Positions 2,364 to 29,189 of a stretch of 38,262 nucleotides of DNA are shown here, piece by piece. The stretch lies in the NCBI GenBank assembly GCA_003136355.1, contig PLED01000009.1, positions 1 through 38,262 of the forward strand, read 5' to 3'. The notes beneath the pieces are model-generated. The model did no database searches. It was not told where the DNA came from and worked only from the letters and a program-made list of their open reading frames with translations. The first letter of the stretch is position 1. Each line of letters begins with the position of its first letter. Both the position numbers and the translations under genes were made by a program. This DNA is from Vulcanimicrobiota bacterium (GTDB lineage: Bacteria > Vulcanimicrobiota > Vulcanimicrobiia > Vulcanimicrobiales > Vulcanimicrobiaceae).

Positions 2364-3059
2364 ATGCTGTCGGGCGCAATCCTCGCCGCGGCCCTTACCC
2401 CGTTGCAAATCTTCTTTCATGCCGAAGATGCGTGGGAAGCTCGCGCGCTTCCGGCTTACGTCGCCTTTGACACGGTGATTACGCACCGGGACGCAGCCGG
2501 CATCGTCACCCGCGGAAACGAGCACGTAGTCCTGCGCACGTTCGATCATTGGTGCGCGACCGTCGAGATCGACCAAGGATTGGCGCAGCCGAAAACGAGC
2601 CGCGGACCCAACTGCGAAGGGCCGGCCTATTCTCCGCTCGGCTTCAACATTTCGTCGGTCTATCCGGGCAGCACGCAGCCCGATCCATTCGCACCCTCCA
2701 AACTTCCGGTGATCGCGCAGGTACGCGCCGCGCATTACGACGTAACGCTCGTTGGCGAAGAGCGACTCGATGAGGCGGACGTTTATCACCTGCTCTTGCG
2801 TCCATTGAACGCTCCCAACCAGTATCCGCTGCGCGCGCTCTGGGTCGATCGCGCCACGTTCCAGGTGCGCAAGCTGACGTATGCGGAAAACCCCGGCGGC
2901 TGGAGCGCCGCGATCGATTATTCTTTCAAACCGTACGGCTCGCAAGCAGTTTGGTGGATATCCGAGATCGACGCGAATTGGCAGCCCGCGCCCAATTCAA
3001 GAGACCGCGCCTTTTCGAGCACGCTCGTCGTGCAGAACGTGAGCTTTCCATCGCTCTAG
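2364..3059 (+). CDS. Putative exported protein of unknown function
   Basis: A 231-aa protein starting at ATG 2364 behind GAGG, 22 bp after the previous gene, so probably co-transcribed with it. The N-terminus (MLSGAILAAALTPLQIFF) resembles a short signal sequence. The rest is rich in beta strands and aromatic residues, with two Cys (in HWCATVE and GPNCEGP) that could pair outside the cytoplasm. The pattern LRALWVDRATFQVRKLTY resembles the half-barrel outer-membrane lipoprotein-sorting (LolA/LolB-like) folds, in which similar strands follow one another, but I cannot assign it. Its stop overlaps the stop of the convergent reductase gene by 4 bp. Confidence 0.7.
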   Translation: MLSGAILAAALTPLQIFFHAEDAWEARALPAYVAFDTVITHRDAAGIVTRGNEHVVLRTFDHWCATVEIDQGLAQPKTSRGPNCEGPAYSPLGFNISSVYPGSTQPDPFAPSKLPVIAQVRAAHYDVTLVGEERLDEADVYHLLLRPLNAPNQYPLRALWVDRATFQVRKLTYAENPGGWSAAIDYSFKPYGSQAVWWISEIDANWQPAPNSRDRAFSSTLVVQNVSFPSL

Positions 3060-3985
3060 CCTGCTAGGTAAGTCTCCCGGCCGGGCGGCGTCAGGAGATC
3101 GAGAGTTGGCCCTATCGGAACGATCCGCGTCGGGTTAATCTCTTCATGGGTCATGTAATAGTGGCGCTTGATGTGGTCGAAGTTTACCGTTCCGGCGATG
3201 CCGTCGATCTGGTACAGATCGCGCAGATAGCCCCACAGGTTTGGGTAGTCGGCGATACGGCGCACGTTGCATTTGAAATGCCCGAAGTAGACCGCGTCAA
3301 AGCGGATCAGCGTCACGAACAGTTTCCAGTCGGTCTCCACCGGATGCCCGGCGATCAGGTAGCGGCGGTGCGCTAGGCGTTCTTCCAAGCGATCGAGGGT
3401 TTCGAAGACGCGGTATGCCGCCTTCTCGTAGGCTTCTTGCGACGTCGCGAATCCCGCGCGGTACACGCCGTTATTGACGGTTTCGTAGATGAGCTCGTTG
3501 AGCGCGTCGATCTCGTCGCGGTGCGCGGCCGGATACAGATCGACGTGGTTTTTTGCAACCGTTTCGAACTTCGTCTCGAACGCGCGCATGATGTCGTCGT
3601 CGGAGTTGTTGACGATCCGCCCGGCATGCTTGTCCCAAAGCGCCGGCACGGTCACGCGTCCACGGTAATCCGGATCGCCGGCCGCATAAGCCTCACTCAA
3701 GAACGCGAAGCCGTTGATCGGGTCGCGCGAATATCCGGGCCCGTCCCGGAACGCCCACCCGCGGTCGTCGCGGATCGGATCGACGGCGCTCATGCTTATC
3801 GCATCTTCGAGGCCCTTCAGCTTGCGCGCGATGATCGCGCGCGAGGCCCACGGACACGCCCACGACACGTACAGATGATAGCGCCCGGCTTCCCCCGCAA
3901 TGGGCTCGCGAAACGCGTCGTCCTGGCGCTGAAAGTCTCCGCCGCTTTGCTCGTCGGGGAACTGCGCCCGCACCGTTTCCGGCAC
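3056..3985 (-). CDS. Glutathionyl-hydroquinone reductase (GST Xi class, YqjG/ECM4 family)
   Basis: The 309-aa protein matches S-glutathionyl-(chloro)hydroquinone reductases, which remove glutathione from glutathionyl-hydroquinones with release of GSSG. The signature VSWACPWASRA carries the catalytic Cys44, unlike the Ser/Tyr of ordinary GSTs. Further family features are DPINGFAFLSEAY, VPALWDK, IVNNSDDDIMRAF and the helical C-terminal domain with IYETVNNGVYRAGFATSQEAYE. The start is GTG 3985, one base after the TGA of the multicopper oxidase-ZIP gene, so translation is probably coupled. Oxidases of the neighbour's family can make quinones from phenols and this enzyme repairs glutathione-quinone adducts, so a shared pathway is plausible but unproven. 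Confidence 0.9.
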   Translation of the reverse strand: MPETVRAQFPDEQSGGDFQRQDDAFREPIAGEAGRYHLYVSWACPWASRAIIARKLKGLEDAISMSAVDPIRDDRGWAFRDGPGYSRDPINGFAFLSEAYAAGDPDYRGRVTVPALWDKHAGRIVNNSDDDIMRAFETKFETVAKNHVDLYPAAHRDEIDALNELIYETVNNGVYRAGFATSQEAYEKAAYRVFETLDRLEERLAHRRYLIAGHPVETDWKLFVTLIRFDAVYFGHFKCNVRRIADYPNLWGYLRDLYQIDGIAGTVNFDHIKRHYYMTHEEINPTRIVPIGPTLDLLTPPGRETYLAG

Positions 3986-3986
3986 G

Positions 3987-5882
3987 TCAGCCGCTTAAGT
4001 CCAAGACCAGCTCCGTTGTAAGCGCGATCAAAAATCCGCAAGCGAGCATCGAAGTCACCAGCGGCGTGATACCCAGGTTCCGCCGAAGCACGGCCCAGAT
4101 TTCGCCGATCACGAAGACGAGCGCGCCGATCGCGGTCGCCAAAAACAACACCGAGAGAACCGGCGATTGGAACGTATAGCCGACCACCGTACCGAGAAAC
4201 GTCGGACCGCCGGCCACGATACCGGCCAAGCCGAGTTGCGGCCAAGTCGGAATGACGCGCCCCGAAAGCGGAGCGGCAATGCCGAAGCCTTCGGTGGCGT
4301 TGTGCAGCGCAAAGCCGACGATCAGACCGATGGCGATCGCGGTTGCGCCGCTTGCGGCCGAAGCGCCGATAGCGAGCCCTTCCGCGAAATTATGCGCGCC
4401 GATCCCGATCGCAATGACTGCGGCCAGCACCAGCGGCTGGTGAAGCGACGAGGCGGCGCGGCTGCTCAGCTTATTCGCGACGAAGCCCAATCCGACCAGT
4501 CCCGCGAACAGTCCGCCGACGTAGGCAATCGCAAGCGAAATGACTCCCGACGGTGCGCCGCCGCCGTGCCAGAATCGCGCCGCCTGCGCCAGCGGCGCGG
4601 TTGCGCTTGCCGCAATCTCGACGACCAAGTACACGAGGATTCCGATCGCGAGCGCGTTTAATGCGGCCATGACCGAAGGCGACACGTTGCGCATGCGCGC
4701 CACCGGCAATCCGAGAAATATCGTGAGTCCGGCGATCGCGCCCAAAAACACGGTCATCCCGAACGACAATCCACCCTTCGAGCGACCGAACGACGGCAGC
4801 ATCGCGCGCATTGCCGTGTTCATCGCCGCACCCGTGTACGGGGTGCCCTGGTAGTGAATGGTGGTGACTAAGCCGTCGGGCATTCCCGAAGCATCCTCGG
4901 TATGGTCGATCACGTGACAGTGCACGAGCCACGTCCCGGGTATTTGGTTCGCTTGGATGACGACGTCCACACGCTGTCCGGGTCCCAAGAAAACCGTGTC
5001 TTCGATATCCCGGTACGTCACCGGCTGCGCGTCGCGCGCGACGATACGCTGATAATGCCCGTGCGTGTGCATCGTGTGCATGCTTTCGCCCGAGATGTTG
5101 ATCCAGCGAAGGCGAACGCGTTGACCTTTGCGCACCTCTATGGGCGCCGTGTACGGATACTCTCTTCCGTTGATCGTGAAATGATTTTCGCTCAGACTTT
5201 GAATCGCCCACGACGACAGTACCTCGACGTAGTCGCGATCGGATCGTTCCGCCGCAGATGCGTGCGTAGGCAAGACGACAATTGCGCCATATAAGCCGCT
5301 GTTGACCATCTCTTCGTTGTCGTGCGAATGATAGATGAACGTTCCGGGCGTGCCGGCGGTGAAAACGTAGCGATACGACTGGCCTTGCATGACGAGCGCC
5401 TGCGAAATGCCCGCAACGCCGTCCATGCTTACCGGAATTTCGTGAATGCCGTGCAGATGCAGCGTGTCGGGAGTGCTCTGCTCGTTGCGGTAATCGATCA
5501 CGACGCGATCGCCCTGATGCACGACCAGCGTCGGGCCGGGGACGACGCCGTTATAGGTCTTGGCCATCACCGTCAGTCCGGGCTGGAGCGTCCAGGGAGC
5601 GTCGCGCTCCACCAGATGAAAAGTTCGCGTGCGTCCGCTGGACTGCGCGACCGCTCCAAAGGTTCCGTCTTCGCGCCGTGTCAGCCGGGACTCGCCCGGG
5701 TAAGGGGTCGCGGTGGGAATGGCTCCGCGAAGCGGCTGCATACCGATCGCCGCAGGATTAACCCCGGCCGTCGTCTCGTCCGTGTCCGCCCATGCCGGGC
5801 CTGCGCTGAGGACGCCTAGGAGCAAGGCAAAAACGAGTAAGCCTCGCCTGACGATCGAATTTGGCACGCCTAATTTCTTCAT
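3987..5882 (-). CDS. Multicopper oxidase fused to a ZIP-family metal transporter
   Basis: A 631-aa fusion. Residues 1-32 form a signal peptide with a twin arginine (SIVRRGLLVFALLLG). Residues about 85-345 are a two-cupredoxin multicopper oxidase with all four copper motifs: HLHG 142-145, HSH 185-187, HTMHTHGH 269-276 and HCHVIDH 321-327, plus a late Met334. Residues about 372-631 are hydrophobic, with about eight helices, and carry the paired ZIP motifs HNFAEG (497-502) and HNATEG (527-532) of the metal site. The oxidase should face outward and the ZIP part sits in the membrane. ATG 5882 is chosen because the signal peptide begins there; the frame stays open upstream to 6188 without domain content. 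The reductase gene follows one base after the stop. The metal (Fe, Mn, Zn or Cu) cannot be told from sequence. Confidence 0.93.
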   Translation of the reverse strand: MKKLGVPNSIVRRGLLVFALLLGVLSAGPAWADTDETTAGVNPAAIGMQPLRGAIPTATPYPGESRLTRREDGTFGAVAQSSGRTRTFHLVERDAPWTLQPGLTVMAKTYNGVVPGPTLVVHQGDRVVIDYRNEQSTPDTLHLHGIHEIPVSMDGVAGISQALVMQGQSYRYVFTAGTPGTFIYHSHDNEEMVNSGLYGAIVVLPTHASAAERSDRDYVEVLSSWAIQSLSENHFTINGREYPYTAPIEVRKGQRVRLRWINISGESMHTMHTHGHYQRIVARDAQPVTYRDIEDTVFLGPGQRVDVVIQANQIPGTWLVHCHVIDHTEDASGMPDGLVTTIHYQGTPYTGAAMNTAMRAMLPSFGRSKGGLSFGMTVFLGAIAGLTIFLGLPVARMRNVSPSVMAALNALAIGILVYLVVEIAASATAPLAQAARFWHGGGAPSGVISLAIAYVGGLFAGLVGLGFVANKLSSRAASSLHQPLVLAAVIAIGIGAHNFAEGLAIGASAASGATAIAIGLIVGFALHNATEGFGIAAPLSGRVIPTWPQLGLAGIVAGGPTFLGTVVGYTFQSPVLSVLFLATAIGALVFVIGEIWAVLRRNLGITPLVTSMLACGFLIALTTELVLDLSG

Positions 5883-17067: not shown

Positions 17068-17073
17068 GGAATT

Positions 17074-17148
17074 TCGGGCTGACTGGATTCGAACCAGCGA
17101 TCTCCTGACCCCCAGTCAGGCGCGATAACCAAGCTTCGCTACAGCCCG
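17074..17148 (-). tRNA. tRNA-Pro (anticodon GGG)
   Basis: The minus strand folds as a full cloverleaf. The acceptor stem is CGGGCTG/CAGCCCG with C1-G72, the identity pair of bacterial tRNA-Pro. The anticodon stem CCTGA/TCAGG encloses loop CTGGGGG (anticodon GGG), and the T arm holds GGTTCGAATCC. The discriminator base is A73 and CCA is not encoded. It lies 6 nt before the RNase HI-like start codon. Confidence 0.95.
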
Positions 17149-17167
17149 ATGGCCGGGGCCAAACGGA

Positions 17168-19155: not shown

Positions 19156-20343
19156 TCAGTTGGGCAATACTCTTACAAATTTTCGCGCGCCGACCGAGAG
19201 CGTCACCGGCCCGCCCGCGGGCCACGGCGCCTTCGGGTCTTCGACGAGTATACCATCGATGCGTACACCCTTACCCGCGACCAAACGCTCTGCAGCGCGC
19301 CGGCTTTCCGCCAGCCCCGACGCAACCAGGACGTCCGCGACGCGCCGCGCTCCGCCCAGCTTGATCTCGGGCACGTCTCCGGCGGGCAATTCGCGCTGCT
19401 GAACGGTCCGTTCGAAATACTCCCGGGCTGCGTTCGCGGCCGCCGCGCCATGATAGAGCGCGACCACTTCTTGGGCGATCCGTTTCTTCTCTTGCATCGG
19501 ATGCGCTTTGCCGCCCGCGAGCGATTGTGAAAGACGGTCGCATTCTTCTTGCGAACGAAATGCCGCCAGGCGCGCATAACGCGGGATCGATTCATCCGGA
19601 ATCCGCATCAATTTTCCGAACTGCTGTTCCGCGGGCTCGGTCAAACCTACATAATTGCCGGCCGATTTAGACATCTTCTTGGAGCCGTCCAGACCTTCGA
19701 GCAGCGGGACGGTCATGCACACCTGTTCGCGCTGCCCGGCCGCGCGCTGATATTGGCGCCCCATGAGCAGGTTAAAGAGCTGATCGTTACCGCCGAGCTC
19801 GACGTCGGCGTGCAGCGCGATGCTGTCGTATGCCTGCGCAATCGGATAAAGGAACTCATGCAGCGCGATCGGCGTCCCGGCTTTGTAGCGTTCGTGAAAA
19901 TCTTCGCGCTCGATCATTTGCGCGACGGTGACTTGAGAGAGCAGCCGCAGTAAATCGGCCGACGTCAGACGGTCGAGCCACGTGGAATTGTATTCCAGAC
20001 GCACGCGATCCATATCGAGCACTTTGCCGGCTTGTTCCGCATACGTTTTCATGTTTGCCGTTATCTCGGCGGTCGTGAGCGGAGGGCGCAGTTCGTTGCG
20101 TCCCGACGGATCGCCGATGCGGGCGGTAAACGAGCCGATGACCAAGACGACTTTGTGTCCGGCGTCGACAAACGCCTGAAGTTTACGCAAGACGACCGCG
20201 TGTCCCAAATGCAGATCGGGAGCCGTGGGATCCAGTCCGAGCTTGACGGTGAGCGGTTCGGGGCCGGCTAGCCGTTCCTCGAGCTCGCGCTGCGTTTCGA
20301 CGTGGTCGAACCCGTCGAGCAGTTCCTCAATCGCTTTGGACAT
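19156..20343 (-). CDS. tyrS: Tyrosyl-tRNA synthetase
   Basis: A 395-aa class I aminoacyl-tRNA synthetase that charges tRNA-Tyr. Seen: the HIGH-type motif HLGH (residues 45-48), SFTARIGDPSGR, EFLYPIAQAYDSIAL, DVELGGNDQLFNLLMGR and KMSKS (223-227). A C-terminal S4 RNA-binding domain follows (about 335-395, VADVLVASGLAESRRAAERLV). The HLGH form and length place it in the TyrS2/TyrZ-like group rather than the E. coli TyrS group. ATG 20343 lies 2 bp after the mutS2 stop. Confidence 0.96.
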   Translation of the reverse strand: MSKAIEELLDGFDHVETQRELEERLAGPEPLTVKLGLDPTAPDLHLGHAVVLRKLQAFVDAGHKVVLVIGSFTARIGDPSGRNELRPPLTTAEITANMKTYAEQAGKVLDMDRVRLEYNSTWLDRLTSADLLRLLSQVTVAQMIEREDFHERYKAGTPIALHEFLYPIAQAYDSIALHADVELGGNDQLFNLLMGRQYQRAAGQREQVCMTVPLLEGLDGSKKMSKSAGNYVGLTEPAEQQFGKLMRIPDESIPRYARLAAFRSQEECDRLSQSLAGGKAHPMQEKKRIAQEVVALYHGAAAANAAREYFERTVQQRELPAGDVPEIKLGGARRVADVLVASGLAESRRAAERLVAGKGVRIDGILVEDPKAPWPAGGPVTLSVGARKFVRVLPN

Positions 20344-20345
20344 CG

Positions 20346-22601
20346 TCAGCGCAGTTCAAAAATCGTTACGCCGCCGCCTCCCTCGTCTTCGCCGCCATAG
20401 CGAACGCCGGTCACCTGCGGATGCGCGCGCAAATATTCTTGCAGTCCGCGCCCGAGCATGCCGGTGCCTTTTCCATGAATGAGCCGCAGCGGAGTATTTC
20501 CCGCCAGCACGGCTTCGTCGATCCAGCGATCGACCAACGGTTCCGCTTCGACGTACCGTTTGCCGCGCACGTCCAACTCCGCCGTGGTTCTGCCGGCGGC
20601 TTCGAGTCGAGCTTGCCCCGCAGAGGGTTCCGAACGTTTGGCACCCATCGCGATCGGACGAAGGTCGTTCTTGCTGACCATCGTCTTCATGGGACCGACC
20701 GCGACGAGGACGTTCTCACCGTTATCGGCGATCACGGAGCCGTCTTGTGAAAGCGAGAGGACGCGTACCGGATCACCTTGCGCGAAGGCGCGCGGCGGCG
20801 CCGTGCCTCCCGCCGGTTCGTCCGAAGACATCCCCAGATCGCGGTGCAGATCGTCGAGGGTTCGCGCTAAGAGCTCCGCCTGACCGCGCGTCACCTTCGG
20901 CGCCACCCGTTGCGCGTTGTGAGCCGCGAGATTTGCCGCGAAGTCGCGCAGCGTTTCGCGCAGCCGCCTCTCGGCGTCTTGCGCGAACGAACGGCGCTCG
21001 CGCTCGAGCGTTTCGGCCCGCGAACGCAAATTTTCTTGCAGCGTGCCGACGTGGTTCCGATCGCGCTGGAGCGCCTCGCGTTCCCGCTGCAGGTTCGCGT
21101 TGAGCCCGGCGAGTTGGCTCAGCGCCCGCTCGTAATCGCGATCGCGCGACGTCAACAGGGCCTCGGCGTTGGCAATCAGGTCGCGATCGATGCCGATCGA
21201 TCGCGCGAGCGCAAAAGCCAGCGACTGTCCCGGGGTTCCGACGTCCAAATGAAACGTCGGCGCGAACGTCTGCGGATCGAACCGCACGCTCGCGTTCGTC
21301 ACCTTGCCGGCTTCGTGGGCAAAGAGCTTGAGCTCCGTGCTATGCGTGGTGACGATGCCGCACGCGCCGACGGCGAGCAGCCGTCCGAGCATCGCGACTG
21401 CGAGCGCCGCGCCGCTTCCCGGCTCGGTGCCGCCGCCGATCTCGTCGACGAGCACGAGCGAACGCGGACCGGCACGCGCCAGAATGTCGCGCATCCGCGC
21501 GAGATGCGCCGAAAACGTTGATGTGTTGGCGGCGATGGACTGCTCGTCACCGATGTCGGCAAAGACGCAGTCGAACCGCCCGATGCGGGTTCCGTCGGCC
21601 GCCGGCACTTGCATTCCGGCATACGTCATCAGCACGAACAAGCCGACCATTTTGAGCGCGACCGTTTTCCCGCCCATGTTCGGACCGCTGATAACTAGGA
21701 CGCGCGTGTTTTCGTCCAGTGTGAGCGATTGGGGAACGGCGCGATCGCCGAGCAGCGGATGGCGTCCCGACGCAACGCTCACTTCCGACTCTTGCGTGAG
21801 GTCGGGCGCGCGCGCGTCCATCGCTTGCGCGACGTTTGCTTTGGCCGCCAGTACGTCGAGCTCCGCGAGCATCTCGGTGTTGGCTTCGATCTGTGGAGAT
21901 TGCGCGCCGGCTTCGCGTGAAAGCTGCGCAAGGATTCGCGCGACTTCGCGCTCTTCGTCAATCTGGAGCGTGCGAACGCGATTGTTGGTTTCCAGCGCCG
22001 CGAGCGGCTCGACGAACACGGTCTGTCCGCTCGAGCTCGTGTCGTGCACGATGCCAGGCACGTCCCCGCTGAACTCCGTTTTCACCGGAACCACGAACCG
22101 GCCGTCGCGGATCTTCACGACCGAATCTTGGATCGCGCGGGCGTACTTCGGCGATCGCAGCAGCGCGCTGACGCGATCGCGGGCTTCGCGCTGCGCGTTC
22201 TGCAGGTTCTTGCGGATGCGGCCGAGCGCCGGCGAGGCGCGGTCGAGCACGACGCCGCGCTCGTCGATTGCATCGGTCAGCGCGCGCTGCAACTCTTTGA
22301 GGGGACGGTATGGTGCGGTTACTTCGGCAAGGGCGTCGCCGGCGTATTCGCGAGTTTTATTGAAGGCCGCCGCAGCCGCGCCGATCGCCTCGGCGAGCGA
22401 TCGCAAATCAAGCGCCGAGAGCGCGGTGCCGATCGCGGCGCGCGTCGTGAGATCCGCCGTTTCGACGGCGGGCAGAACGTGGAAGTCGGCGGAAGCGACG
22501 AGATCGCGCACGGCCGCAGTTTTGGCCTGCTCGAGAACCGCGCGGTCGAAATCGGGCGACGGTTGCAGCGCTTCGGCGCGAACGCGTCCGCGTTCCGTCA
22601 C
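20346..22601 (-). CDS. mutS2: Endonuclease/recombination suppressor MutS2
   Basis: A 751-aa protein from GTG 22601. Walker A GPNMGGKT (306-313), a Walker B region SLVLVDEIGGGTEPGSG, a long coiled coil (about 485-590) and a C-terminal Smr nuclease domain with LDVRGKR and HGKGTG. There is no mismatch-recognition domain. MutS2 acts on branched DNA and in ribosome collision rescue. MutS2-like sequence continues about 20 residues upstream of this GTG (LETLDFAALRARVAG) in the same frame as far as the gatB stop, without any ATG, GTG or TTG. The true start is therefore unclear: it may use a rare start codon, be truncated, or carry a base error. Confidence 0.9.
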   Translation of the reverse strand: MTERGRVRAEALQPSPDFDRAVLEQAKTAAVRDLVASADFHVLPAVETADLTTRAAIGTALSALDLRSLAEAIGAAAAAFNKTREYAGDALAEVTAPYRPLKELQRALTDAIDERGVVLDRASPALGRIRKNLQNAQREARDRVSALLRSPKYARAIQDSVVKIRDGRFVVPVKTEFSGDVPGIVHDTSSSGQTVFVEPLAALETNNRVRTLQIDEEREVARILAQLSREAGAQSPQIEANTEMLAELDVLAAKANVAQAMDARAPDLTQESEVSVASGRHPLLGDRAVPQSLTLDENTRVLVISGPNMGGKTVALKMVGLFVLMTYAGMQVPAADGTRIGRFDCVFADIGDEQSIAANTSTFSAHLARMRDILARAGPRSLVLVDEIGGGTEPGSGAALAVAMLGRLLAVGACGIVTTHSTELKLFAHEAGKVTNASVRFDPQTFAPTFHLDVGTPGQSLAFALARSIGIDRDLIANAEALLTSRDRDYERALSQLAGLNANLQREREALQRDRNHVGTLQENLRSRAETLERERRSFAQDAERRLRETLRDFAANLAAHNAQRVAPKVTRGQAELLARTLDDLHRDLGMSSDEPAGGTAPPRAFAQGDPVRVLSLSQDGSVIADNGENVLVAVGPMKTMVSKNDLRPIAMGAKRSEPSAGQARLEAAGRTTAELDVRGKRYVEAEPLVDRWIDEAVLAGNTPLRLIHGKGTGMLGRGLQEYLRAHPQVTGVRYGGEDEGGGGVTIFELR

Positions 22602-22691
22602 GCACCGGCCCGCAACGCGCGCGCGCAGCGCCGCGAAATCGAGGGTCTCGAGGGTGCGGTCGTCGGCGAGCGCTACGTTTTCCGCTTGTGG

Positions 22692-24152
22692 TTACTCCAA
22701 TTTCTTGCGCAGCAGCTCGTTGACGAGTGCAGGATTGGCTTTCCCGCGCGACGCCTTCATGACCGCTCCGGTGAGAAAGCCCAGGATGTTCGTTTTGCCG
22801 GCTTTGTAGTCGGTTGCCGCCTTTTCGTTCGCGGCCAAAATATCGTCGATCAGCTTTTCGATTTCGCCGGTGTCGCTGGTTTGCGTGAGGCCTTCTTTCT
22901 CGACGATCGCTTTCGGCGATCCTTCGCCCGCCCACATCCGCTCGAGGAGTTCTTTGGCGATCTTTGAGTTGATCGTTTTGCCTTCGACAAGCGTCACGAG
23001 CTCGGCCAACGCAGCCGGCGTGACCACCGACTCGCTCGCGGCGATGCCGGTTTCATTCGCGAGCCGGGAAAGATCGCCCAGAACGAAATTCATGCTCGCT
23101 TGAGCATTGGCGCCGGCCGCGACGGACGCGTCGTAGTAGTCGGCAAGGGCCGAGTTGTCGACGAGCTGCGTGGCCTGCTTGGCGTCCATTCCGTACTCGC
23201 GGTACTTTGCAAAGCGTTGGGGCGGAAGCACCGGAATCGTCTTGCGCAGTTCCTCGATGAGCGCGGCGCCGATTTCGATCGGTACCAGATCGGGATCGGG
23301 GAAGTAGCGGTAATCGTGCGCTTCTTCTTTGCTGCGCATCGAGTGCGTCTCGCCTTGCCCTTCGTCCCAGCCGCGCGTCTCCTGGACAATGCGGCCGCCT
23401 GATTCCATAATCGCCGTCTGCCGTTCGATTTCGCTTTCGATGGCGCGCAGCACCGACCGGAACGAATTCATGTTCTTGATCTCGGTCTTCGTCCCCAATT
23501 CCGAACTGCCCGCGGGACGAATGGAAACGTTGGCATCGCAGCGCAGCGAGCCTTCCTCCATCTTTACGTCGCTCACGCCCAACTGCACGAACGTGCGTTT
23601 GAGCGATTCCAAATAGCCGACCGCTTCTTGCGCGCTGCGCAGATCGGGTTCGCTGACGCACTCCATCAGCGGCACACCGGCGCGGTTGAAATCGATCAGC
23701 GAGAACGAGCTGCCCGCAATCCGTCCGTCCCCACCGCCGCCGTGCATCGATTTGCCCGTATCTTCTTCTAAATGGATGCGCGTGAGCTTACACTCTTTGA
23801 GCGTCCCGTCTTCGAGCCAGTAGCGCACGGTGCCGCCCAGCGTTAACGGCATGTCGTATTGCGAGATCTGATAATCCTTGGGCATGTCGGGATAGAAGTA
23901 GTTCTTGCGATCGAACTTCGAAAACGCCGGAATCGACGCACCGAACGCGAGGCCGGCACGAATCATGTGCCGGATCGCTTCGGCGTTGGCAACCGGCAGC
24001 GAGCCCGGCAACGCGAGGCAAACCGGACAGACCTTTGTGTTGGGCTCGCCGCCGAACTCGTTGGCGCATGCGCAAAACATTTTGCTGCGCGTCTTCAACT
24101 CGACGTGACACTCGATTCCGATAACGGCTTCGTACTGGGTCTTCACCGTCAC
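22692..24152 (-). CDS. gatB: Asp/Glu-tRNA(Asn/Gln) amidotransferase subunit B
   Basis: A 486-aa subunit that binds mischarged Glu-tRNA(Gln) or Asp-tRNA(Asn) and phosphorylates the amino acid before amidation. Seen: YEAVIGIECHVELKT, the zinc cysteines in FCACANEFGG and KVCPVCLALPGSLPVAN, KNYFYPDMPKDYQISQYD, IDFNRAGVPLMECVSEPD and the C-terminal tRNA-binding GatB/YqeY helical domain ending in LLRKKLE. It starts with GTG 24152, which overlaps the gatA stop by 4 bp (GTGA). Confidence 0.97.
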   Translation of the reverse strand: MTVKTQYEAVIGIECHVELKTRSKMFCACANEFGGEPNTKVCPVCLALPGSLPVANAEAIRHMIRAGLAFGASIPAFSKFDRKNYFYPDMPKDYQISQYDMPLTLGGTVRYWLEDGTLKECKLTRIHLEEDTGKSMHGGGGDGRIAGSSFSLIDFNRAGVPLMECVSEPDLRSAQEAVGYLESLKRTFVQLGVSDVKMEEGSLRCDANVSIRPAGSSELGTKTEIKNMNSFRSVLRAIESEIERQTAIMESGGRIVQETRGWDEGQGETHSMRSKEEAHDYRYFPDPDLVPIEIGAALIEELRKTIPVLPPQRFAKYREYGMDAKQATQLVDNSALADYYDASVAAGANAQASMNFVLGDLSRLANETGIAASESVVTPAALAELVTLVEGKTINSKIAKELLERMWAGEGSPKAIVEKEGLTQTSDTGEIEKLIDDILAANEKAATDYKAGKTNILGFLTGAVMKASRGKANPALVNELLRKKLE

Positions 24153-25609
24153 ACCGCGACCGTACCCTTAGCGGCGTGAGCGGTCGCACGTTCGTACGCA
24201 TGTGCGGCACCGAGCAGCTTCGCTTCTTCGAAGAGCGGCGCGGCCAGCTGCAATCCCATTGGAAGCGCCGGTGTGCCGGCGTACCCGCACGGAACCGAGA
24301 GCGCGGGCAAACCGGCCAGCGACATCGGTATCGTGTAGTAATCCATCATGTACATGCTGTACGGATCGCTCTTGGAGTCGAATTCAAACGCGGGGCTGCT
24401 TGCAGCGGGCGCCGCGATCAGATCGCAGCGTTCGAACGCCTTCCGGAAATCTTGGGCGAACATCGTGCGCGCCTTCTGAGCTTTGACGTAATAGGCGTCA
24501 TAGTATCCGCTCGAAAGCGCGTATGTGCCGATCAGAATACGGCGCTTCACTTCGGCGCCAAAACCGGCCGCGCGAGTCTGCTCGTACATCTGTCCGACAT
24601 CGGCGCCGTCGACGCGTAATCCATAGCGGACTCCGTCGAACCTCGCCAAATTGCTGCTGCATTCGGCCGGCGCGATTAAATAATAGGTCGCCAGCCCGTA
24701 ATCCGCGGTCGGCAGTGCGACTTCAACGAGTTCCGCTCCGAGCCCGGCGAGTTCTTCATACGCCCGTTTGTAGAGCGCGTCGATTTCCGGGCCGAGCTTA
24801 GCGGTCTCAAACTCCTTGACGATGCCGATCCGCAGGCCTTTGAGATCGTCGCGCAGCGAAGATGCGGCCGGCTCGACCGGGCGATCGATGCTCGTGGAAT
24901 CCATGGGATCGTGCCCGGCCATGGCGTCGTAGGCCAGCGCCGCATCTTCAACGGTGCGCGTCAGCGGACCGATCTGGTCCAAACTCGACGCAAACGCGAT
25001 CAGGCCATAGCGCGATACGCGTCCGTACGTCGGCTTGAAACCGACGACGTTGCAGAACGCGCCAGGTTCGCGAATCGATCCGCCGGTATCGCTTCCCAAT
25101 CCGATCGCCGCCTCGAAAGCCGCGACGGCCGCGGCCGAGCCGCCCGAGCTGCCGCCCGGCACGCGTTTGAGGTCGTACGGATTGCGCGTCACGCCGAGCG
25201 CGCTGTTTTCGCACGAACTGCCCATCGCGAACTCGTCGAGATTCGACTTTCCAATCGGAATCGCGCCCGCGTCGAGCATGCGCTGAACGGCGGTCGCCGT
25301 GTAGGGTGCTATCCAGTTCTCTAAGATCTTGGACGCGGCGGTTGTCCGCGTCCCGGCCAAACACATGTTGTCTTTGACCGCGAGCGGGACGCCTGCAAGC
25401 GGCAACCTTTCACCCGCTGCCACGCGCTCGTCAACATGCTGCGCCTGTTGGCGCGCGCGATCGTGCAGCCGCGTGAGATAACATCCCAGCCGGTCGTCGA
25501 CTTCATCGACCCGGGCCAGCACCGCCTCGGTCACATCGCGTGCGGAAATGCGCTTGGCGCTCACGTCGCGCACGATATCGGCCGCCGATCGTTTGACGAT
25601 GTCGTTCAC
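24149..25609 (-). CDS. gatA: Asp/Glu-tRNA(Asn/Gln) amidotransferase subunit A (glutaminase)
   Basis: A 486-aa amidase-signature enzyme that frees ammonia from glutamine for GatB. The Ser-cisSer-Lys triad is complete: Lys79 (AVKDN), Ser154 (PGGSSGGSAAAVAA) and Ser178 (SDTGGSIREPG). GTG 25609 is chosen because it overlaps the gatC stop by 4 bp (GTGA) and fits the family N-terminus; the frame is open further upstream to 25693 but that part overlaps gatC. Confidence 0.97.
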   Translation of the reverse strand: MNDIVKRSAADIVRDVSAKRISARDVTEAVLARVDEVDDRLGCYLTRLHDRARQQAQHVDERVAAGERLPLAGVPLAVKDNMCLAGTRTTAASKILENWIAPYTATAVQRMLDAGAIPIGKSNLDEFAMGSSCENSALGVTRNPYDLKRVPGGSSGGSAAAVAAFEAAIGLGSDTGGSIREPGAFCNVVGFKPTYGRVSRYGLIAFASSLDQIGPLTRTVEDAALAYDAMAGHDPMDSTSIDRPVEPAASSLRDDLKGLRIGIVKEFETAKLGPEIDALYKRAYEELAGLGAELVEVALPTADYGLATYYLIAPAECSSNLARFDGVRYGLRVDGADVGQMYEQTRAAGFGAEVKRRILIGTYALSSGYYDAYYVKAQKARTMFAQDFRKAFERCDLIAAPAASSPAFEFDSKSDPYSMYMMDYYTIPMSLAGLPALSVPCGYAGTPALPMGLQLAAPLFEEAKLLGAAHAYERATAHAAKGTVAV

Positions 25610-25899
25610 GGTTCGGCGATGATCTTTGGAACGCGGAAAAACGCGCCTTGGCGCTGCGGTGCCATCGACAACACCGTTTCGCGGTCCAAGCACGGTCCGG
25701 CTTCGTCGGAACGCTCGACGTTTGTGGATTCGACGACTTGCGCGGTCGCCGGCACGGCGGACGTTTCCAATTCGGAGAGCACGTTGACGTGCTCGAGCAG
25801 ATCGCCCAACTGCTTACCGAAGCGTTCGACTTCGTCTTGCGTGAGCGCGATCCGCGCGAGTTTTGCAACGTACCGGACGTCTATTTTATCAGATGCCAC
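25606..25899 (-). CDS. gatC: Asp/Glu-tRNA(Asn/Gln) amidotransferase subunit C
   Basis: A 97-aa belt protein that stabilises the GatA-GatB contact. Typical sequence: VRYVAKLARIALTQDEVERF, LGDLLEHVNVLSELET and the closing FFRVPKII. It starts with GTG 25899 behind GAGG and lies 7 bp after the methyltransferase gene. The order gatC-gatA-gatB with 4-bp overlaps is the common bacterial layout. Confidence 0.95.
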   Translation of the reverse strand: MASDKIDVRYVAKLARIALTQDEVERFGKQLGDLLEHVNVLSELETSAVPATAQVVESTNVERSDEAGPCLDRETVLSMAPQRQGAFFRVPKIIAEP

Positions 25900-25906
25900 G
25901 CCTACC

Positions 25907-27250
25907 TCAGGAAAGGGCGAGCAGCGCCAGCGTCTCGACGTGTCCCGTTTGCGGAAACATGTCGAACGGCTGCACCTCGCCGGGGCCGTATCCTTTGGCG
26001 GCCAGAAACTTCAAATCCCGGGCGAGCGTGGCCGGATCGCACGACAGGTACCAAATCGCGGGGATTCGCCGGGCGGCGATTGCGGCGAGCGCGCGTTGCT
26101 CGCAGCCCTTGCGCGGCGGATCCAAAAACACCGCCTCGGTTCCGGCGACGTCCTTCGCCATGGCCGGGTGGGTGAGCGCGTGCTCTACCGTGCTCGTGTG
26201 AAAGCGCGCCTTAGCGGCAAGCCCGTTGAGCGCCGCATTTTCGCGAGCCTCGGCAACGGCGAGCGCGTTCTCCTCGATCCCCAAAACCGTCGAGCCGCGC
26301 TTCGCGAAATACAGCGCAAACGCACCCGCGCCGCAGTACAGATCGAGGATGCGCAGCGGCCGTTTCAGCAGCGGATCGAGCCGTTCCAAAATACGCTCGA
26401 GGATCTCGACATTGACCTGAAAGAACGAGCCCGACGACACCCGGTAGCGCAAGCCGCCCATCGATTCTTCGATTGTGGCAGAACCTGTAAGCGTACGCTG
26501 CCTGCGCCCGAGAATTGCATTCGAACCGGAGAGATCGTAGGAGTTCGTGAGGCCCGAAATCTTCTCGAGTTTGGCTGAAATTTGCGGCGCTTTCGCCTTT
26601 AACGTCTCATCGGGTCGATCGGTCGTGAACGTCACGACGACCTCACCCGTAGCCTGCGCGGTTCGCGCGACGACGTGGCGCGCGCGCTCGAAGGCATCGG
26701 CGGTTTCCGGTTCCGCCTTCGCTGCGTTCAGCCGCGATATTTGCGCGTCCAGTCTCGGTAACACGATTGGACAGCCATCGATTTGGACCACATCGTGCGA
26801 CCGCTGCTTGTAGAAACCCACGCGTTCGCACGACCGGTCCACAACCAGCGACATCTTGTTACGGTACGCGCGCGGGTTCCGCATGCCGGTGGTTTCCGCG
26901 ACGGCAATATCAGCGAAGCCGCCGATGCGAACGAGCGCGTTGCGAACGACGTCACGTTTCCAGGCCAGCTGCGCCGGATAGACGAGGTGCTGCAGCTGAC
27001 AACCGCCGCACTCGCCAAAGACCGGACAGAACGGCGCGACCCGGTCGCTCGACGTTTCGAGAATCGTCAGCAGTTGCGCGACGGCATATTTCGGCTTGAC
27101 CGACGTGATGCGTACGCGCGCGCGCTCTTTCGGCAGCGGGCCGAAGCAGAAAAGGACGATGCCGCCGGCGCGCCCGACCGCTTGGCCGTTGGCGAGGACG
27201 TCGGTGAACGCGAGTTCGAGTTCGGAGCCGGGGCTAACGCTGATCGTCAA
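25907..27250 (-). CDS. 23S rRNA/tRNA (uracil-C5)-methyltransferase, RumA/TrmA family
   Basis: A 447-aa SAM-dependent enzyme that makes 5-methyluridine in RNA. An N-terminal TRAM-like domain (about 8-60) is followed by four Cys for a 4Fe-4S cluster: Cys75, Cys81, Cys84 (FCPVFGECGGCQLQH) and Cys160 (DGCP). The catalytic domain has FFQVN, DLYCGAGAFAL (SAM site), FLDPPRKGC, the nucleophile region YLSCDPATLARDL and DMFPQTGHVETLALL at the end. The Fe-S cluster favours the rRNA (RlmD or RlmCD-like) over the TrmA role, but the exact uridine is not predictable. The start is TTG 27250, overlapping the end of the small gene upstream by 17 bp. Confidence 0.92.
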   Translation of the reverse strand: MTISVSPGSELELAFTDVLANGQAVGRAGGIVLFCFGPLPKERARVRITSVKPKYAVAQLLTILETSSDRVAPFCPVFGECGGCQLQHLVYPAQLAWKRDVVRNALVRIGGFADIAVAETTGMRNPRAYRNKMSLVVDRSCERVGFYKQRSHDVVQIDGCPIVLPRLDAQISRLNAAKAEPETADAFERARHVVARTAQATGEVVVTFTTDRPDETLKAKAPQISAKLEKISGLTNSYDLSGSNAILGRRQRTLTGSATIEESMGGLRYRVSSGSFFQVNVEILERILERLDPLLKRPLRILDLYCGAGAFALYFAKRGSTVLGIEENALAVAEARENAALNGLAAKARFHTSTVEHALTHPAMAKDVAGTEAVFLDPPRKGCEQRALAAIAARRIPAIWYLSCDPATLARDLKFLAAKGYGPGEVQPFDMFPQTGHVETLALLALS

Positions 27251-27440
27251 GCGTTTTGAGAAGTTGGTTTGCCTCGTCGATCAGTTGTTGAATGCGCCGG
27301 CTCGTGGGATCGGCCGGCCGCCGCGAAATCGCGGCGCGTATCAGCGCGAATGCAAGCGCGGCCGACAGCCCCGCAACGCCGACCCAAACGAGCGTGCGCG
27401 TCATGCTGCCGTCACGTTTTCCGTGCGATCCGTCGTTCAT
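27234..27440 (-). CDS. Small single-pass membrane protein (68 aa)
   Basis: A short protein from ATG 27440. It has a polar start, one transmembrane helix (about 14-35, LVWVGVAGLSAALAFALIRA), then a basic stop-transfer stretch (RRPADPTSRR) and a helical tail (IQQLIDEANQLLKTLDDQR). No family is recognised. It overlaps the start of the uracil-methyltransferase gene by 17 bp and so could be the first gene of the run leading into gatCAB. An upstream ATG at 27470 is possible. Confidence 0.55.
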   Translation of the reverse strand: MNDGSHGKRDGSMTRTLVWVGVAGLSAALAFALIRAAISRRPADPTSRRIQQLIDEANQLLKTLDDQR

Positions 27441-27548
27441 ATCGATCTCGTCTATTGGCTGCGCGTGCATCGAGTCGGCTGTGCTCCCTTGGCTTGCTCT
27501 TCGTCACCGTTATGAGGAATGTCTTTTCGCGCCACGGAAGTCGCCTAG

Positions 27549-28361
27549 ATGAAGTTGGCAGCATTGCTGCTTGCCGCGGCCGTTACGTTGATACCCACTT
27601 CGGGGCCCGTAGTTTCGGTGGCCTACGCCGCGTCACTGGTGGCCGTGATGGAGGGATCGGTCGCGCGAACTTTCGACTCGCGCACCGGGCTGCGCTTCGC
27701 GGGCGAAGCCAAAGGAAGCCGCGTGCTCGCGAACTTGATTCGCGCGGGTTTACGCGATCCGGATATTTTCATCAGCGCCGACCCGGCGCTCTTCAAAGGC
27801 CTCGTTCGATCGTATACCGTCTTCGGATAGGCTCGAATGGTCGTGGCTTACTCTACACAGTCCGCGCGCGCGCAACTTTTTGCCGGCGCCGCGAAGGGCA
27901 AAATCTCTCTTTTGGATGCGCAGATCACGCCCGGGGTGCGCGTGGGTCGCACCGACCCCGCCATCGATCCGAAGGGCGCCCGCACGGTGCGCGTCATTCA
28001 GCTGCTCGGACAGCGCTTCCACCGAGCGGATCTCGCCCGGAGGCTTCTGGAAAACGCGCGCGAGTTTCCCGAGGAAGACCTTGCCGTGCGCGTCCAGACC
28101 GGCGAGCTCGACGCGGGCTTCTTCTACTCGACCGAGACGGCGCCGATGGGTTTACGGACCATCGAGCTGCCCGCCGGGACGAATCTCGCGAACGATATCG
28201 CGTTTGGGATTGCCGTCTTGGAGCACGCTCCGCACCCTCAAAACGCACAGACTTTCTTGAGCTTCATCCTGTACGGTCAAGGCAAGCATATCTTGGAGTC
28301 CGCGGGACTGCACTTCTTCAAATCATTGCGGGTCGTCGCCATGCCGGCGGCTTCCCAGTAA
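27549..28361 (+). pseudogene. Molybdate/tungstate ABC transporter substrate-binding protein, split by one in-frame TAG
   Basis: Two pieces in the same reading frame, 27549-27830 and 27837-28361, together about 270 residues, make one ModA/WtpA-type periplasmic oxyanion-binding protein. The first has a signal peptide (about 1-27), VMEGSVARTF and PDIFISADPAL. The second has ARMVVAYSTQSARAQL, VGRTDPAIDPKGART and the hinge GELDAGFFYSTE. The only interruption is TAG at 27828, between VFG and ARMVVAYS, where one residue would be expected; TCG to TAG would do it. It may be a nonsense mutation, a base error, or, less likely, read through. No ModB/ModC genes lie nearby. Confidence 0.8.
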
Positions 28362-28382
28362 AGGAACAGCTCGAACCTGAAA

Positions 28383-29189
28383 TTGAGACCACGGCGCGAC
28401 CGCGCACAGCGGTTCTTATTTTGGGCCTTTCTTTTCTCGATCGCTTTCCATCTCATCGCAGGTCCGCTCCTGACATGGCTCTTGCGCGCGCGTTTCGTCG
28501 CCGGCGCGCAGCAGCTTCAGCCGGTCGAAACGATCTCGGTAACGTCGAGCGCGATTCGCATGGAGCGCCGCCCGAAAGCGCAGCACCCTTCGGTCCGGCC
28601 GCCCGCGGCACAGCCGGCGCCTCGCGCCATCGCCCGGGCTCAGCCCGCGCAGGCCCCGCACCGGGAACTCGCGCGAATAACGCCACGCGCCATCATCAGC
28701 GTGCCGCGCGTAAGCGCCCGGAACGAAACGCAAACGCCGAGCTTCAGTCAACAGTTAGCAAAACAGCAAGTTGCCTTTACTCAAACGATCGCGCGGCTGC
28801 GAGAAGAAAATAATCCCGTTGCCGGCGCGGCACAACCCGTTACCGTTTCTCCGGCGAAACGCTACACGAACAACTTTTCGGGCAGTATCGGCTCACCGGA
28901 CATCGGAGAAGGCATTCTTTATCCGACACAATCGTGGCAAGTAGGGCCGTGGGATTATTACTATGTGCGTTATTGGGTGCTCTATCCGGATGGAACCAGC
29001 GAAACGGGAACCGTGCCGTGGCCCGTTCGCTTTCCGCGATCGCTGGATCCGATCAAACTCGGATGGCGCAGCATGCCGCTTCCCGGCCCGGAACCGGGTT
29101 ACGTTTTGCCGCCCGATGCGAACCCGCATCCGCTCGTGGCTTTTTGTTACGCGCATCGCTTCTCGTCGTGCCCCGTCGCCCACGAATAG
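28383..29189 (+). CDS. TonB-like protein: one membrane anchor, proline-rich linker, novel C-terminal domain
   Basis: A 268-aa protein starting at TTG 28383, 21 bp after the binding-protein frame. Basic N-terminus, one helix (about 11-33, FLFWAFLFSIAFHLIAGPLLTW), then a Pro/Ala/Gln/Arg-rich stretch (about 60-115) like the periplasm-spanning linker of TonB, then a coiled segment and an aromatic-rich C-terminal region (PWDYYYVRYWVLYPDG) with two Cys. The C-terminal part is not recognisably the TonB_C domain, so function in outer-membrane uptake is only suggested by layout and by the neighbouring oxyanion-binding protein. Its stop is flush with the dnaE2 stop on the other strand. Confidence 0.65.
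   Translation: MRPRRDRAQRFLFWAFLFSIAFHLIAGPLLTWLLRARFVAGAQQLQPVETISVTSSAIRMERRPKAQHPSVRPPAAQPAPRAIARAQPAQAPHRELARITPRAIISVPRVSARNETQTPSFSQQLAKQQVAFTQTIARLREENNPVAGAAQPVTVSPAKRYTNNFSGSIGSPDIGEGILYPTQSWQVGPWDYYYVRYWVLYPDGTSETGTVPWPVRFPRSLDPIKLGWRSMPLPGPEPGYVLPPDANPHPLVAFCYAHRFSSCPVAHE

What the first reader, a model, noticed from the sequence alone, without database searches (positions are those of the whole stretch)
3987..5882. Natural fusion of a multicopper oxidase to a ZIP metal transporter
One continuous 631-codon frame joins a secreted oxidase with all four copper motifs to a ZIP membrane domain with both HNxxEG metal motifs. ZIP carriers move divalent metals inward and multicopper oxidases can oxidise Fe(II), Mn(II) or Cu(I). 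The fusion could couple metal oxidation to transport at the cell surface, a bacterial single-chain version of the Fet3/Ftr1 idea with a different carrier. I know of no characterised protein with this layout.
Basis: partly seen in the sequence, partly recalled or inferred. Interest (0 to 1): 0.72.

Follow-up and report, generated by a model that had tools for sequence, protein, structure and literature searches.

The report
Copper oxidase fused to metal importer
A single bacterial protein joins an enzyme that oxidises substrates with copper to a membrane importer for metal ions; it is conserved across a whole class of almost entirely uncultured bacteria and carries the DNA switch of iron- or manganese-sensing repressors, so it looks like a one-piece metal-scavenging machine nobody has yet studied.

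Summary
The fusion is real but lies on the minus strand (5882..3987). It joins an exported two-domain multicopper oxidase (MCO), with all copper ligands, to an eight-helix ZIP carrier (BbZIP fold, Z about 20). It is not an assembly artefact: one frame spans more than 500 residues of it in 67 of 149 genomes of the phylum (Candidatus Eremiobacterota), all in one class. Copper ligands and ZIP transport-site residues are invariant but for one His in one of 52 orthologs.

Pairing an MCO with a ZIP is not itself new. The two lie as adjacent genes in ammonia-oxidising archaea (published), and here in Bacillales, Deinococcus, Rubrobacter and haloarchaea. Those pairs use a different MCO subtype (type-1 copper in domain 1, not domain 2). 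One Deinococcus plasmid has the reverse order, ZIP-MCO.

New here: a DtxR/IdeR-type half-box (TTAGG-N4-SCTAA) sits at the promoter in 36 of 38 non-redundant orthologs. In twelve genomes a DtxR-family regulator lies beside the gene, eleven of them directly upstream. FeoB is absent from the class and FTR1 from the phylum. I favour a repressor-controlled iron (or manganese) acquisition protein. That the MCO hands oxidised metal to the carrier is unproven, and ZIPs normally carry divalent ions.

The parts
3987..5867 (-). MCO-ZIP fusion gene, probable CDS (GTG start at 5867, stop 3989-3987; the open frame continues upstream through ATG 5882)
   Evidence: start inferred from the congeners' alignment
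5787..5867 (-). Signal peptide region (VPNSIVRRGLLVFALLLGVLSAGPAWA), predicted by eye
   Evidence: Sequence; helix 9-26 in the model. No signal-peptide program was run.
4836..5633 (-). Two-domain multicopper oxidase, residues 84-349
   Evidence: Pfam, PDB profile, fold match Z 32
5442..5459 (-). Copper motif HLHGIH (residues 142-147), domain 1
   Evidence: H142 and H144 in 52/52
5322..5330 (-). Copper motif HSH (185-187), domain 1; no Cys, so no type-1 copper in domain 1
   Evidence: H185, H187 in 52/52; alignment with type-1-in-domain-1 MCOs
5061..5078 (-). Copper motif HTMHTH (269-274), domain 2
4902..4922 (-). Copper motif HCHVIDH (321-327) with type-1 Cys322, domain 2
4764..4847 (-). Linker between MCO and first ZIP helix (346-373), Met-containing, variable in length (33-47 residues from Y344 to L380 among orthologs)
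   Evidence: Low pLDDT at 365-368; lengths
3993..4763 (-). ZIP carrier, residues 374-630, eight transmembrane helices
   Evidence: AF2 of the half alone, pLDDT 88.8, pTM 0.83; BbZIP Z 16.7-22.4
4377..4394 (-). TM4 motif HNFAEG (497-502); H497/E501 correspond to BbZIP H177/E181
   Evidence: 52/52; correspondence from sequence motif and structural offset
4287..4304 (-). TM5 motif HNATEG (527-532); E531 corresponds to BbZIP E211, N528 to D208
   Evidence: 52/52
4200..4211 (-). TM6 GGPT (558-561), where canonical ZIPs have the M2-site Glu (BbZIP E240)
   Evidence: alignments
5860..5873 (-). DtxR/IdeR-type operator half-box TTAGGCGTGCCAAA (9/10 to TTAGG-N4-SCTAA), with the probable GTG start inside it
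3056..3985 (-). Glutathione-S-transferase-like gene starting 1 nt after the fusion's stop; adjacent in congeners; possibly co-transcribed

Best explanation
The gene encodes a single-chain metal-acquisition protein of the cytoplasmic membrane. SHOWN by sequence and models: a signal-like N-terminus, a complete two-domain MCO with its type-1 copper in domain 2, a linker, and an eight-helix ZIP carrier keeping the residues of the BbZIP M1 transport site but not of the auxiliary M2 site; a DtxR/IdeR-type half-box at the promoter in nearly all orthologs; a DtxR-family regulator directly upstream in one family. INFERRED: when cytosolic Fe(II) (or, less likely, Mn(II)) is ample, the repressor closes the promoter; when it falls, the protein is made; the MCO, held at the outer face of the carrier, uses O2 and its four coppers to oxidise either the metal itself or a ligand holding it, and the ZIP half brings metal into the cell. 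Two-domain MCOs are normally trimers whose trinuclear clusters form between subunits (general knowledge), so the active unit should be a trimeric oxidase cap over several ZIP carriers. Which substrate is oxidised, and whether the oxidised product is what is transported, is not shown.
For: Fusion conserved and under purifying selection in both halves. Half-box TTAGG-N4-SCTAA at 10/10 in 26 and 9/10 in 10 of 38 representatives below 80% identity; in 7,600 dinucleotide shuffles no 10/10 and 0.8% at 9/10. About 21 of 22 perfect TTAGG-N4-CCTAA sites in 245 kb of ortholog loci lie at this gene or its regulator operon (my count); in four whole genomes it is the only such site. The published IdeR box is TTAGGTTAGSCTAACCTAA and overlaps the promoter of repressed genes (PMC10317159). 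Regulator (Fe_dep_repress, Fe_dep_repr_C, FeoA) adjacent in 12 loci, in 11 of them upstream and overlapping or within about 11 nt; all 12 carry Met and Cys at the positions of IdeR Met10 and Cys102, the ligands said to favour Fe(II) over Mn(II). DtxR-family regulators also stand by unfused MCO-ZIP pairs in Deinococcus, Rubrobacter and two haloarchaea, and Deinococcus QL22 has two perfect sites between the genes. FeoB: 0 of 117 genomes of the class, 26 of 32 others; FTR1: 0 of 149.
Against: ZIP carriers move divalent ions, so Fe(III) made by a ferroxidase would be an odd substrate. Nramp is present in 133 of 149 genomes, two copies in the window genome, so Fe/Mn uptake does not depend on this protein. 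The FeoB contrast is one class against the rest, a single evolutionary event. The window genome's own operator has one mismatch, and its only DtxR-family gene is elsewhere (C3) with Glu in place of Met10. NCBIfam scores the Eremiobacterota regulator slightly better with an MntR model than with a DtxR model, both far below cut-off. The cultured Vulcanimicrobium alpinus keeps the MCO without the ZIP.
Confidence: 0.5

Rival explanations
1. Copper handling: the MCO oxidises Cu(I) to Cu(II) and the ZIP half imports Cu(II), as proposed for the archaeal MCO1 and its neighbouring ZIP permease.
For: Published proposal, with upregulation of MCO1 and its permease under copper limitation in N. viennensis (PMC7785015). 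The nearest MCO relatives are fused to or beside DUF4396 next to copC/copD. The Deinococcus KNUC1210 ZIP-MCO lies among copper P-type ATPases and a copper-binding protein. Haloarchaeal pairs are followed by a plastocyanin-like gene.
Against: The operator and adjacent regulator of the Eremiobacterota fusion are of the DtxR family (Fe/Mn), not a copper sensor. The archaeal MCO1 belongs to a different, fully supported clade with its type-1 copper in domain 1. A DUF4396+MCO pair exists separately in at least one genome that also has the fusion (G036), so the copper role may be taken.
Confidence: 0.2
2. Manganese acquisition: an Mn(II)-importing ZIP under an MntR-like repressor, with the MCO serving another purpose (for example oxidising Fe(II) or Cu(I) that would compete for the carrier).
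For: Regulators beside unfused pairs have Asp/Glu at the two diagnostic positions, as in MntR. NCBIfam gives the Eremiobacterota regulator 120.7 bits with an MntR model against 104.6 with a DtxR model.
Against: All 12 regulators beside the Eremiobacterota fusion have Met and Cys at those positions, as in IdeR. The half-box is that of iron sensors. Nramp carriers are already present.
Confidence: 0.17
3. Ligand oxidation: the MCO works as a laccase on phenolic or catecholate ligands, releasing bound iron which the ZIP then imports; in the window genus a GST-like gene directly downstream would deal with the quinones formed.
For: Two-domain type-B MCOs include laccases; MCOs can oxidise siderophores and phenols (cited in PMC7785015). 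A GST gene begins 1 nt after the stop in the window and lies beside the gene in congeners.
Against: The GST neighbour is limited to the window genus (6 loci) and matched no curated NCBIfam family. No substrate evidence.
Confidence: 0.2
4. The ZIP half is mainly a membrane anchor and no longer transports.
For: The M2-site residues and both motif prolines are replaced. V. alpinus has a simple one-helix anchor in place of the ZIP.
Against: All M1-site residues are invariant in 52 orthologs and the half is under purifying selection similar to that on the MCO. BbZIP loses little activity without M2 (PMC11549095).
Confidence: 0.08

Closest known systems
MCO1 + ZIP permease gene pair of ammonia-oxidising archaea (Kerou et al. 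2016, as cited in PMC5817080, PMC5767755, PMC7785015, PMC7819960)
   Same: A two-domain MCO genetically tied to a ZIP-family permease; a Fet3-permease-like role has been suggested.
   Different: Two genes, not one protein; the MCO has its type-1 copper in domain 1 and falls in another clade (100/100 support); studied under copper limitation. The archaeal ZIP could not be fetched, so its kinship to this ZIP half is untested.
MCO-ZIP gene pairs of Bacillales, Deinococcus QL22/D7000, Rubrobacter and haloarchaea (found here)
   Same: ZIP of the same wider subfamily (31-35% identity; HNxxEG/HNxTEG, no TM6 Glu), often with a DtxR-family regulator and in one case the same operator.
   Different: Separate genes; the ZIP has an extra N-terminal extension; MCO of the other subtype; regulators with MntR-like ligands where examined.
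Deinococcus sp. KNUC1210 plasmid protein WP_239052023.1 (L076)
   Same: Single chain of the same two kinds of halves (ZIP 41%, MCO 38% identity; type-1 copper in domain 2).
   Different: Reverse order, ZIP then MCO; copper-resistance surroundings; one trinuclear His replaced by Gln. Annotated only as a multicopper oxidase domain protein.
DUF4396-MCO proteins (Rhodopseudomonas, Leifsonia, Deinococcus wulumuqiensis)
   Same: The same broad MCO clade fused to a membrane domain.
   Different: Membrane partner is DUF4396, not ZIP; the Rhodopseudomonas one sits beside copC/copD.
Fet3/Ftr1 ferroxidase-permease
   Same: The general idea of an MCO coupled to a metal carrier.
   Different: Carrier is ZIP, not Ftr1; FTR1 was not found in any of the 149 genomes.
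BbZIP (5tsa, 8j1m, 8ght)
   Same: Fold and M1-site residues.
   Different: About 20% identity; M2 residues D208 and E240 replaced by Asn and Gly; fused MCO.

Membership tests
ZIP (SLC39-like) transporters | Eight-helix BbZIP fold | tested here: met
   Model of the half alone, pTM 0.83; Z 16.7-22.4 to BbZIP chains, next best 8.7
ZIP (SLC39-like) transporters | M1 transport-site residues in TM4/TM5 (HNxxEG twice) | tested here: met
   H497, N498, E501, H527, E531 in 52/52
ZIP (SLC39-like) transporters | M2 residues (Asp in TM5, Glu in TM6); present in most ZIPs, not essential (PMC11549095) | tested here: not met
   N528 and Gly at the TM6 place in 52/52; an auxiliary, not a defining, feature
ZIP (SLC39-like) transporters | Pfam PF02535 gathering score | tested here: inconclusive
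   33.6 bits against 35.1; E 3e-8
ZIP (SLC39-like) transporters | Transport of divalent metal | not testable with these tools
   Needs an uptake assay
Two-domain multicopper oxidases with type-1 copper in domain 2 (type B) | Two cupredoxin domains with the full set of type-2/3 His and one type-1 site, in domain 2 | tested here: met
   Motifs and alignment; fold
Two-domain multicopper oxidases with type-1 copper in domain 2 (type B) | Homotrimer with intersubunit trinuclear cluster | not testable with these tools
   Single-chain prediction only
Two-domain multicopper oxidases with type-1 copper in domain 2 (type B) | Oxidase activity | not testable with these tools
   Needs an enzyme assay
Archaeal MCO1 + ZIP pair | MCO of the MCO1 lineage (type-1 copper in domain 1) | tested here: not met
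   The N. viennensis MCO (L084) and the unfused-pair MCOs form one clade, 100/100, apart from the fusion MCOs; identification of L084 as MCO1 is itself an inference
Fet3/Ftr1 system | Ftr1 permease | tested here: not met
   Carrier is a ZIP; PF03239 in 0 of 149 genomes
DtxR/IdeR-family regulon | CCTAA-repeat operator at the promoter | tested here: met
   36 of 38 representatives at 9/10 or better; window site 9/10
DtxR/IdeR-family regulon | Regulator with iron-type ligands (Met10, Cys102) | tested here: met
   12 of 12 adjacent regulators; in the window genome the only DtxR-family gene is not adjacent and has Glu for Met10
DtxR/IdeR-family regulon | Binding and metal-dependent repression | not testable with these tools
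   Needs a DNA-binding assay

The most novel reading that the evidence does not exclude
A single-chain oxidase-carrier in which a trimeric copper oxidase oxidises iron at the mouth of ZIP carriers and passes it through, so that a ZIP subfamily lacking the M2 site handles iron in step with its oxidation; this would be the class's replacement for FeoB, under a repressor whose operator in the window genus contains the start codon.
Probability: 0.2. Interest if true: 0.88.

Novelty: new variant of a known kind. Interest (0 to 1): 0.62.

Why it matters
MCO and ZIP genes have been seen side by side in ammonia-oxidising archaea for years, with a role in copper uptake or hydroxylamine oxidation only guessed at. 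A protein in which the two are one chain, conserved across a bacterial class and joined in the opposite order elsewhere, is strong evidence that they act together, and gives a single polypeptide on which oxidation and transport can be measured. The DtxR/IdeR-type operator suggests that the metal is iron or manganese, which bears on how to read the archaeal pair too.

Tried and rejected
Assembly artefact: rejected, since the joint recurs in 67 genomes. Chance frame: rejected, since it is selected and conserved. Direct descent from the archaeal MCO1-ZIP pair: rejected for the MCO half (different clade and type-1 copper position); for the ZIP half the archaeal sequence could not be obtained, because the N. 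viennensis flank in the phage record ends before it. A window-genome regulon of the perfect half-box: no perfect site genome-wide; the only second imperfect site (C51) showed no obvious iron gene nearby. Searching other phyla for the ZIP subfamily with the genome search failed, as the centre must be a G handle, so the spread outside the phylum rests on plasmid and phage records and one genome-contig scan. Tree placement of the Deinococcus KNUC1210 fusion is unsure (long branch), so whether the two fusion orders are independent is likely but not proven. The structure tools return no coordinates, so the angle between the halves and the distance from type-1 copper to the ZIP entrance could not be measured; pTM of the whole chain is only 0.61. 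A Fet3-like acidic Fe(II) site was not tested. Literature: eight searches on the MCO, the ZIP, their pairing or its regulators found no description of the fusion; the library holds open-licence papers only, so this is not proof of absence.

Full report
WHAT IS THERE. The interval 3987-5882 holds a minus-strand frame of 631 codons. Pfam finds an MCO in residues 98-330 and, weakly, a ZIP in 477-589. Modelled with 51 orthologs, the whole chain has mean pLDDT 85.7 but pTM only 0.61, so the two halves are well folded and their mutual angle is uncertain. The MCO half matches two-domain MCOs (3g5w Z 32.4, 2zwn Z 32.2, 3gdc Z 30.8). The ZIP half modelled alone (pLDDT 88.8, pTM 0.83) matches eight BbZIP chains at Z 16.7-22.4 against 8.7 for the next fold.

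LIGANDS. All copper-ligand positions are kept in 52 orthologs, with one His-to-Gln in a single ortholog. Domain 1 has HSH where type-1-in-domain-1 MCOs have HCH, and domain 2 has HCH, so the type-1 copper is in domain 2. [quoted passage not shown] the M2 residues D208 and E240 are Asn and Gly here, and M2 loss is reported to reduce BbZIP transport only modestly (PMC11549095). The motif prolines of canonical HNxPEG are also absent.

SPREAD. One frame covers more than 500 residues of the protein in 67 of 149 genomes of the phylum (my count), all in families f1, f2 and f3 of the window's class. Titles of loci in genome contigs give Candidatus Eremiobacterota. Strong ZIP-profile matches in the class fall in the long fused frame or in frames cut by contig ends or frame breaks; no intact stand-alone ZIP of this subfamily was seen there. 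One complete genome, G118, keeps the MCO with a single C-terminal helix and no ZIP.

THE HALVES ELSEWHERE. Plasmid records hold MCO and ZIP as adjacent genes in Deinococcus, Bacillales, Rubrobacter and haloarchaea. Of 25 plasmid records matching the ZIP half, three that I opened have no MCO beside the ZIP (Mycolicibacterium twice, Natronorubrum); the other 22 show an MCO in the list or in regions that I opened. One plasmid carries a ZIP-MCO chain in reverse order. The MCOs of the gene pairs, with the N. viennensis one, form a clade with 100/100 support apart from the fusion MCOs, which lie with DUF4396-linked MCOs. The ZIP halves of all these belong to one wider subfamily (31-42% identity to the window; the canonical Rubrobacter ZIP only 20%), in which the fused ZIPs stand nearer to stand-alone Mycolicibacterium ZIPs than to the pair ZIPs. 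So one ZIP subfamily has been linked with two MCO subtypes, which argues for a shared function.

CONTROL. In 11 of the 12 loci where one is seen, a DtxR-family regulator lies directly upstream on the same strand, overlapping or within about 11 nt; in the twelfth (L047) it is downstream. Its Pfam make-up is Fe_dep_repress, Fe_dep_repr_C, FeoA. All 12 carry Met and Cys at the IdeR Met10 and Cys102 positions, which favour Fe(II) over Mn(II) (PMC10317159). The regulators examined beside unfused pairs carry Asp or Glu there, as MntR does. The half-box TTAGG-N4-SCTAA occurs at 9/10 or better in 36 of 38 orthologs below 80% identity, 26 of them perfect; 7,600 shuffles of the same regions gave no perfect site and 0.8% at 9/10. 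One further representative, L054, scored 7 in that scan only because its perfect site lies just outside the region. About 21 of 22 perfect TTAGG-N4-CCTAA sites in 245 kb of ortholog loci are at this gene or its operon. In four whole genomes it is the sole perfect site, so the control looks dedicated. The window's own site, 5860-5873, has one mismatch. In congeners the start codon GTG (ATG in L013) lies inside the box.

METAL. FeoB_C is absent from the 117 genomes of the class and present in 26 of 32 others; FTR1 is absent from all 149; Nramp is in 133. This fits an iron role but is confounded by ancestry, and Nramp offers another route.

MECHANISM AND LIMITS. I favour Fe (or Mn) acquisition under a DtxR-family repressor, with the MCO acting on the metal or its ligand at the carrier's outer face. 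Confidence is about 0.5 for this reading as a whole and lower for direct handover of oxidised iron. Copper uptake, manganese uptake, ligand oxidation and a mere anchor role remain as rivals. No activity was or could be measured here.

NOVELTY. The archaeal MCO1-ZIP pair and its Fet3-like hypothesis are published. I found no paper describing the fused protein, its operator or the reverse-order fusion. I file it as a new variant of a known kind.

Noticed in passing
window 3056-3985 (-): A GST-like gene starts 1 nt after the fusion's stop and lies beside the fusion in congeners (six loci); it matched Pfam GST_N_2 and GST_C_2 but no NCBIfam family.
   Followed up: partly
window 5860-5873; L027-L030, L012, L013: In the window genus the probable start codon lies inside the repressor half-box (TTAGGC-GTG-CCRAA), suggesting a leaderless or start-site-occluding arrangement.
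   Followed up: partly
L068:2932-4149 (G118): A complete genome whose length equals that of Vulcanimicrobium alpinus WC8-2 keeps the MCO with a one-helix anchor instead of the ZIP; its only perfect half-box lies elsewhere in the genome.
   Followed up: partly
L085, L087, L099, L070: MCOs of the same broad clade are fused to, or adjacent to, the uncharacterised membrane domain DUF4396; the Rhodopseudomonas one sits beside copC and copD.
   Followed up: partly
L076:7944-9755: A Deinococcus plasmid encodes the reverse-order ZIP-MCO fusion with one trinuclear His replaced by Gln.
   Followed up: partly
class-wide: FeoB_C is absent from all 117 genomes of the class but present in 26 of the other 32 genomes of the phylum.
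   Followed up: no
L053, L059, L060, L061; L077: A TlpA-like thioredoxin gene follows the MCO-ZIP gene in several Eremiobacterota and the MCO-ZIP pair in Deinococcus QL22.
   Followed up: no
L078, L080, L081: In Bacillales a TatA-like gene follows the MCO-ZIP pair, and the MCOs have twin-arginine-like N-termini.
   Followed up: no
window 17073-17149 (-); 19156-32393 (-): The rest of the window looks ordinary: tRNA-Pro, a class I (W/Y-type) tRNA synthetase, a MutS2-like protein, GatB, an amidase (GatA-like), DNA polymerase III alpha, glycosyltransferases.
   Followed up: no
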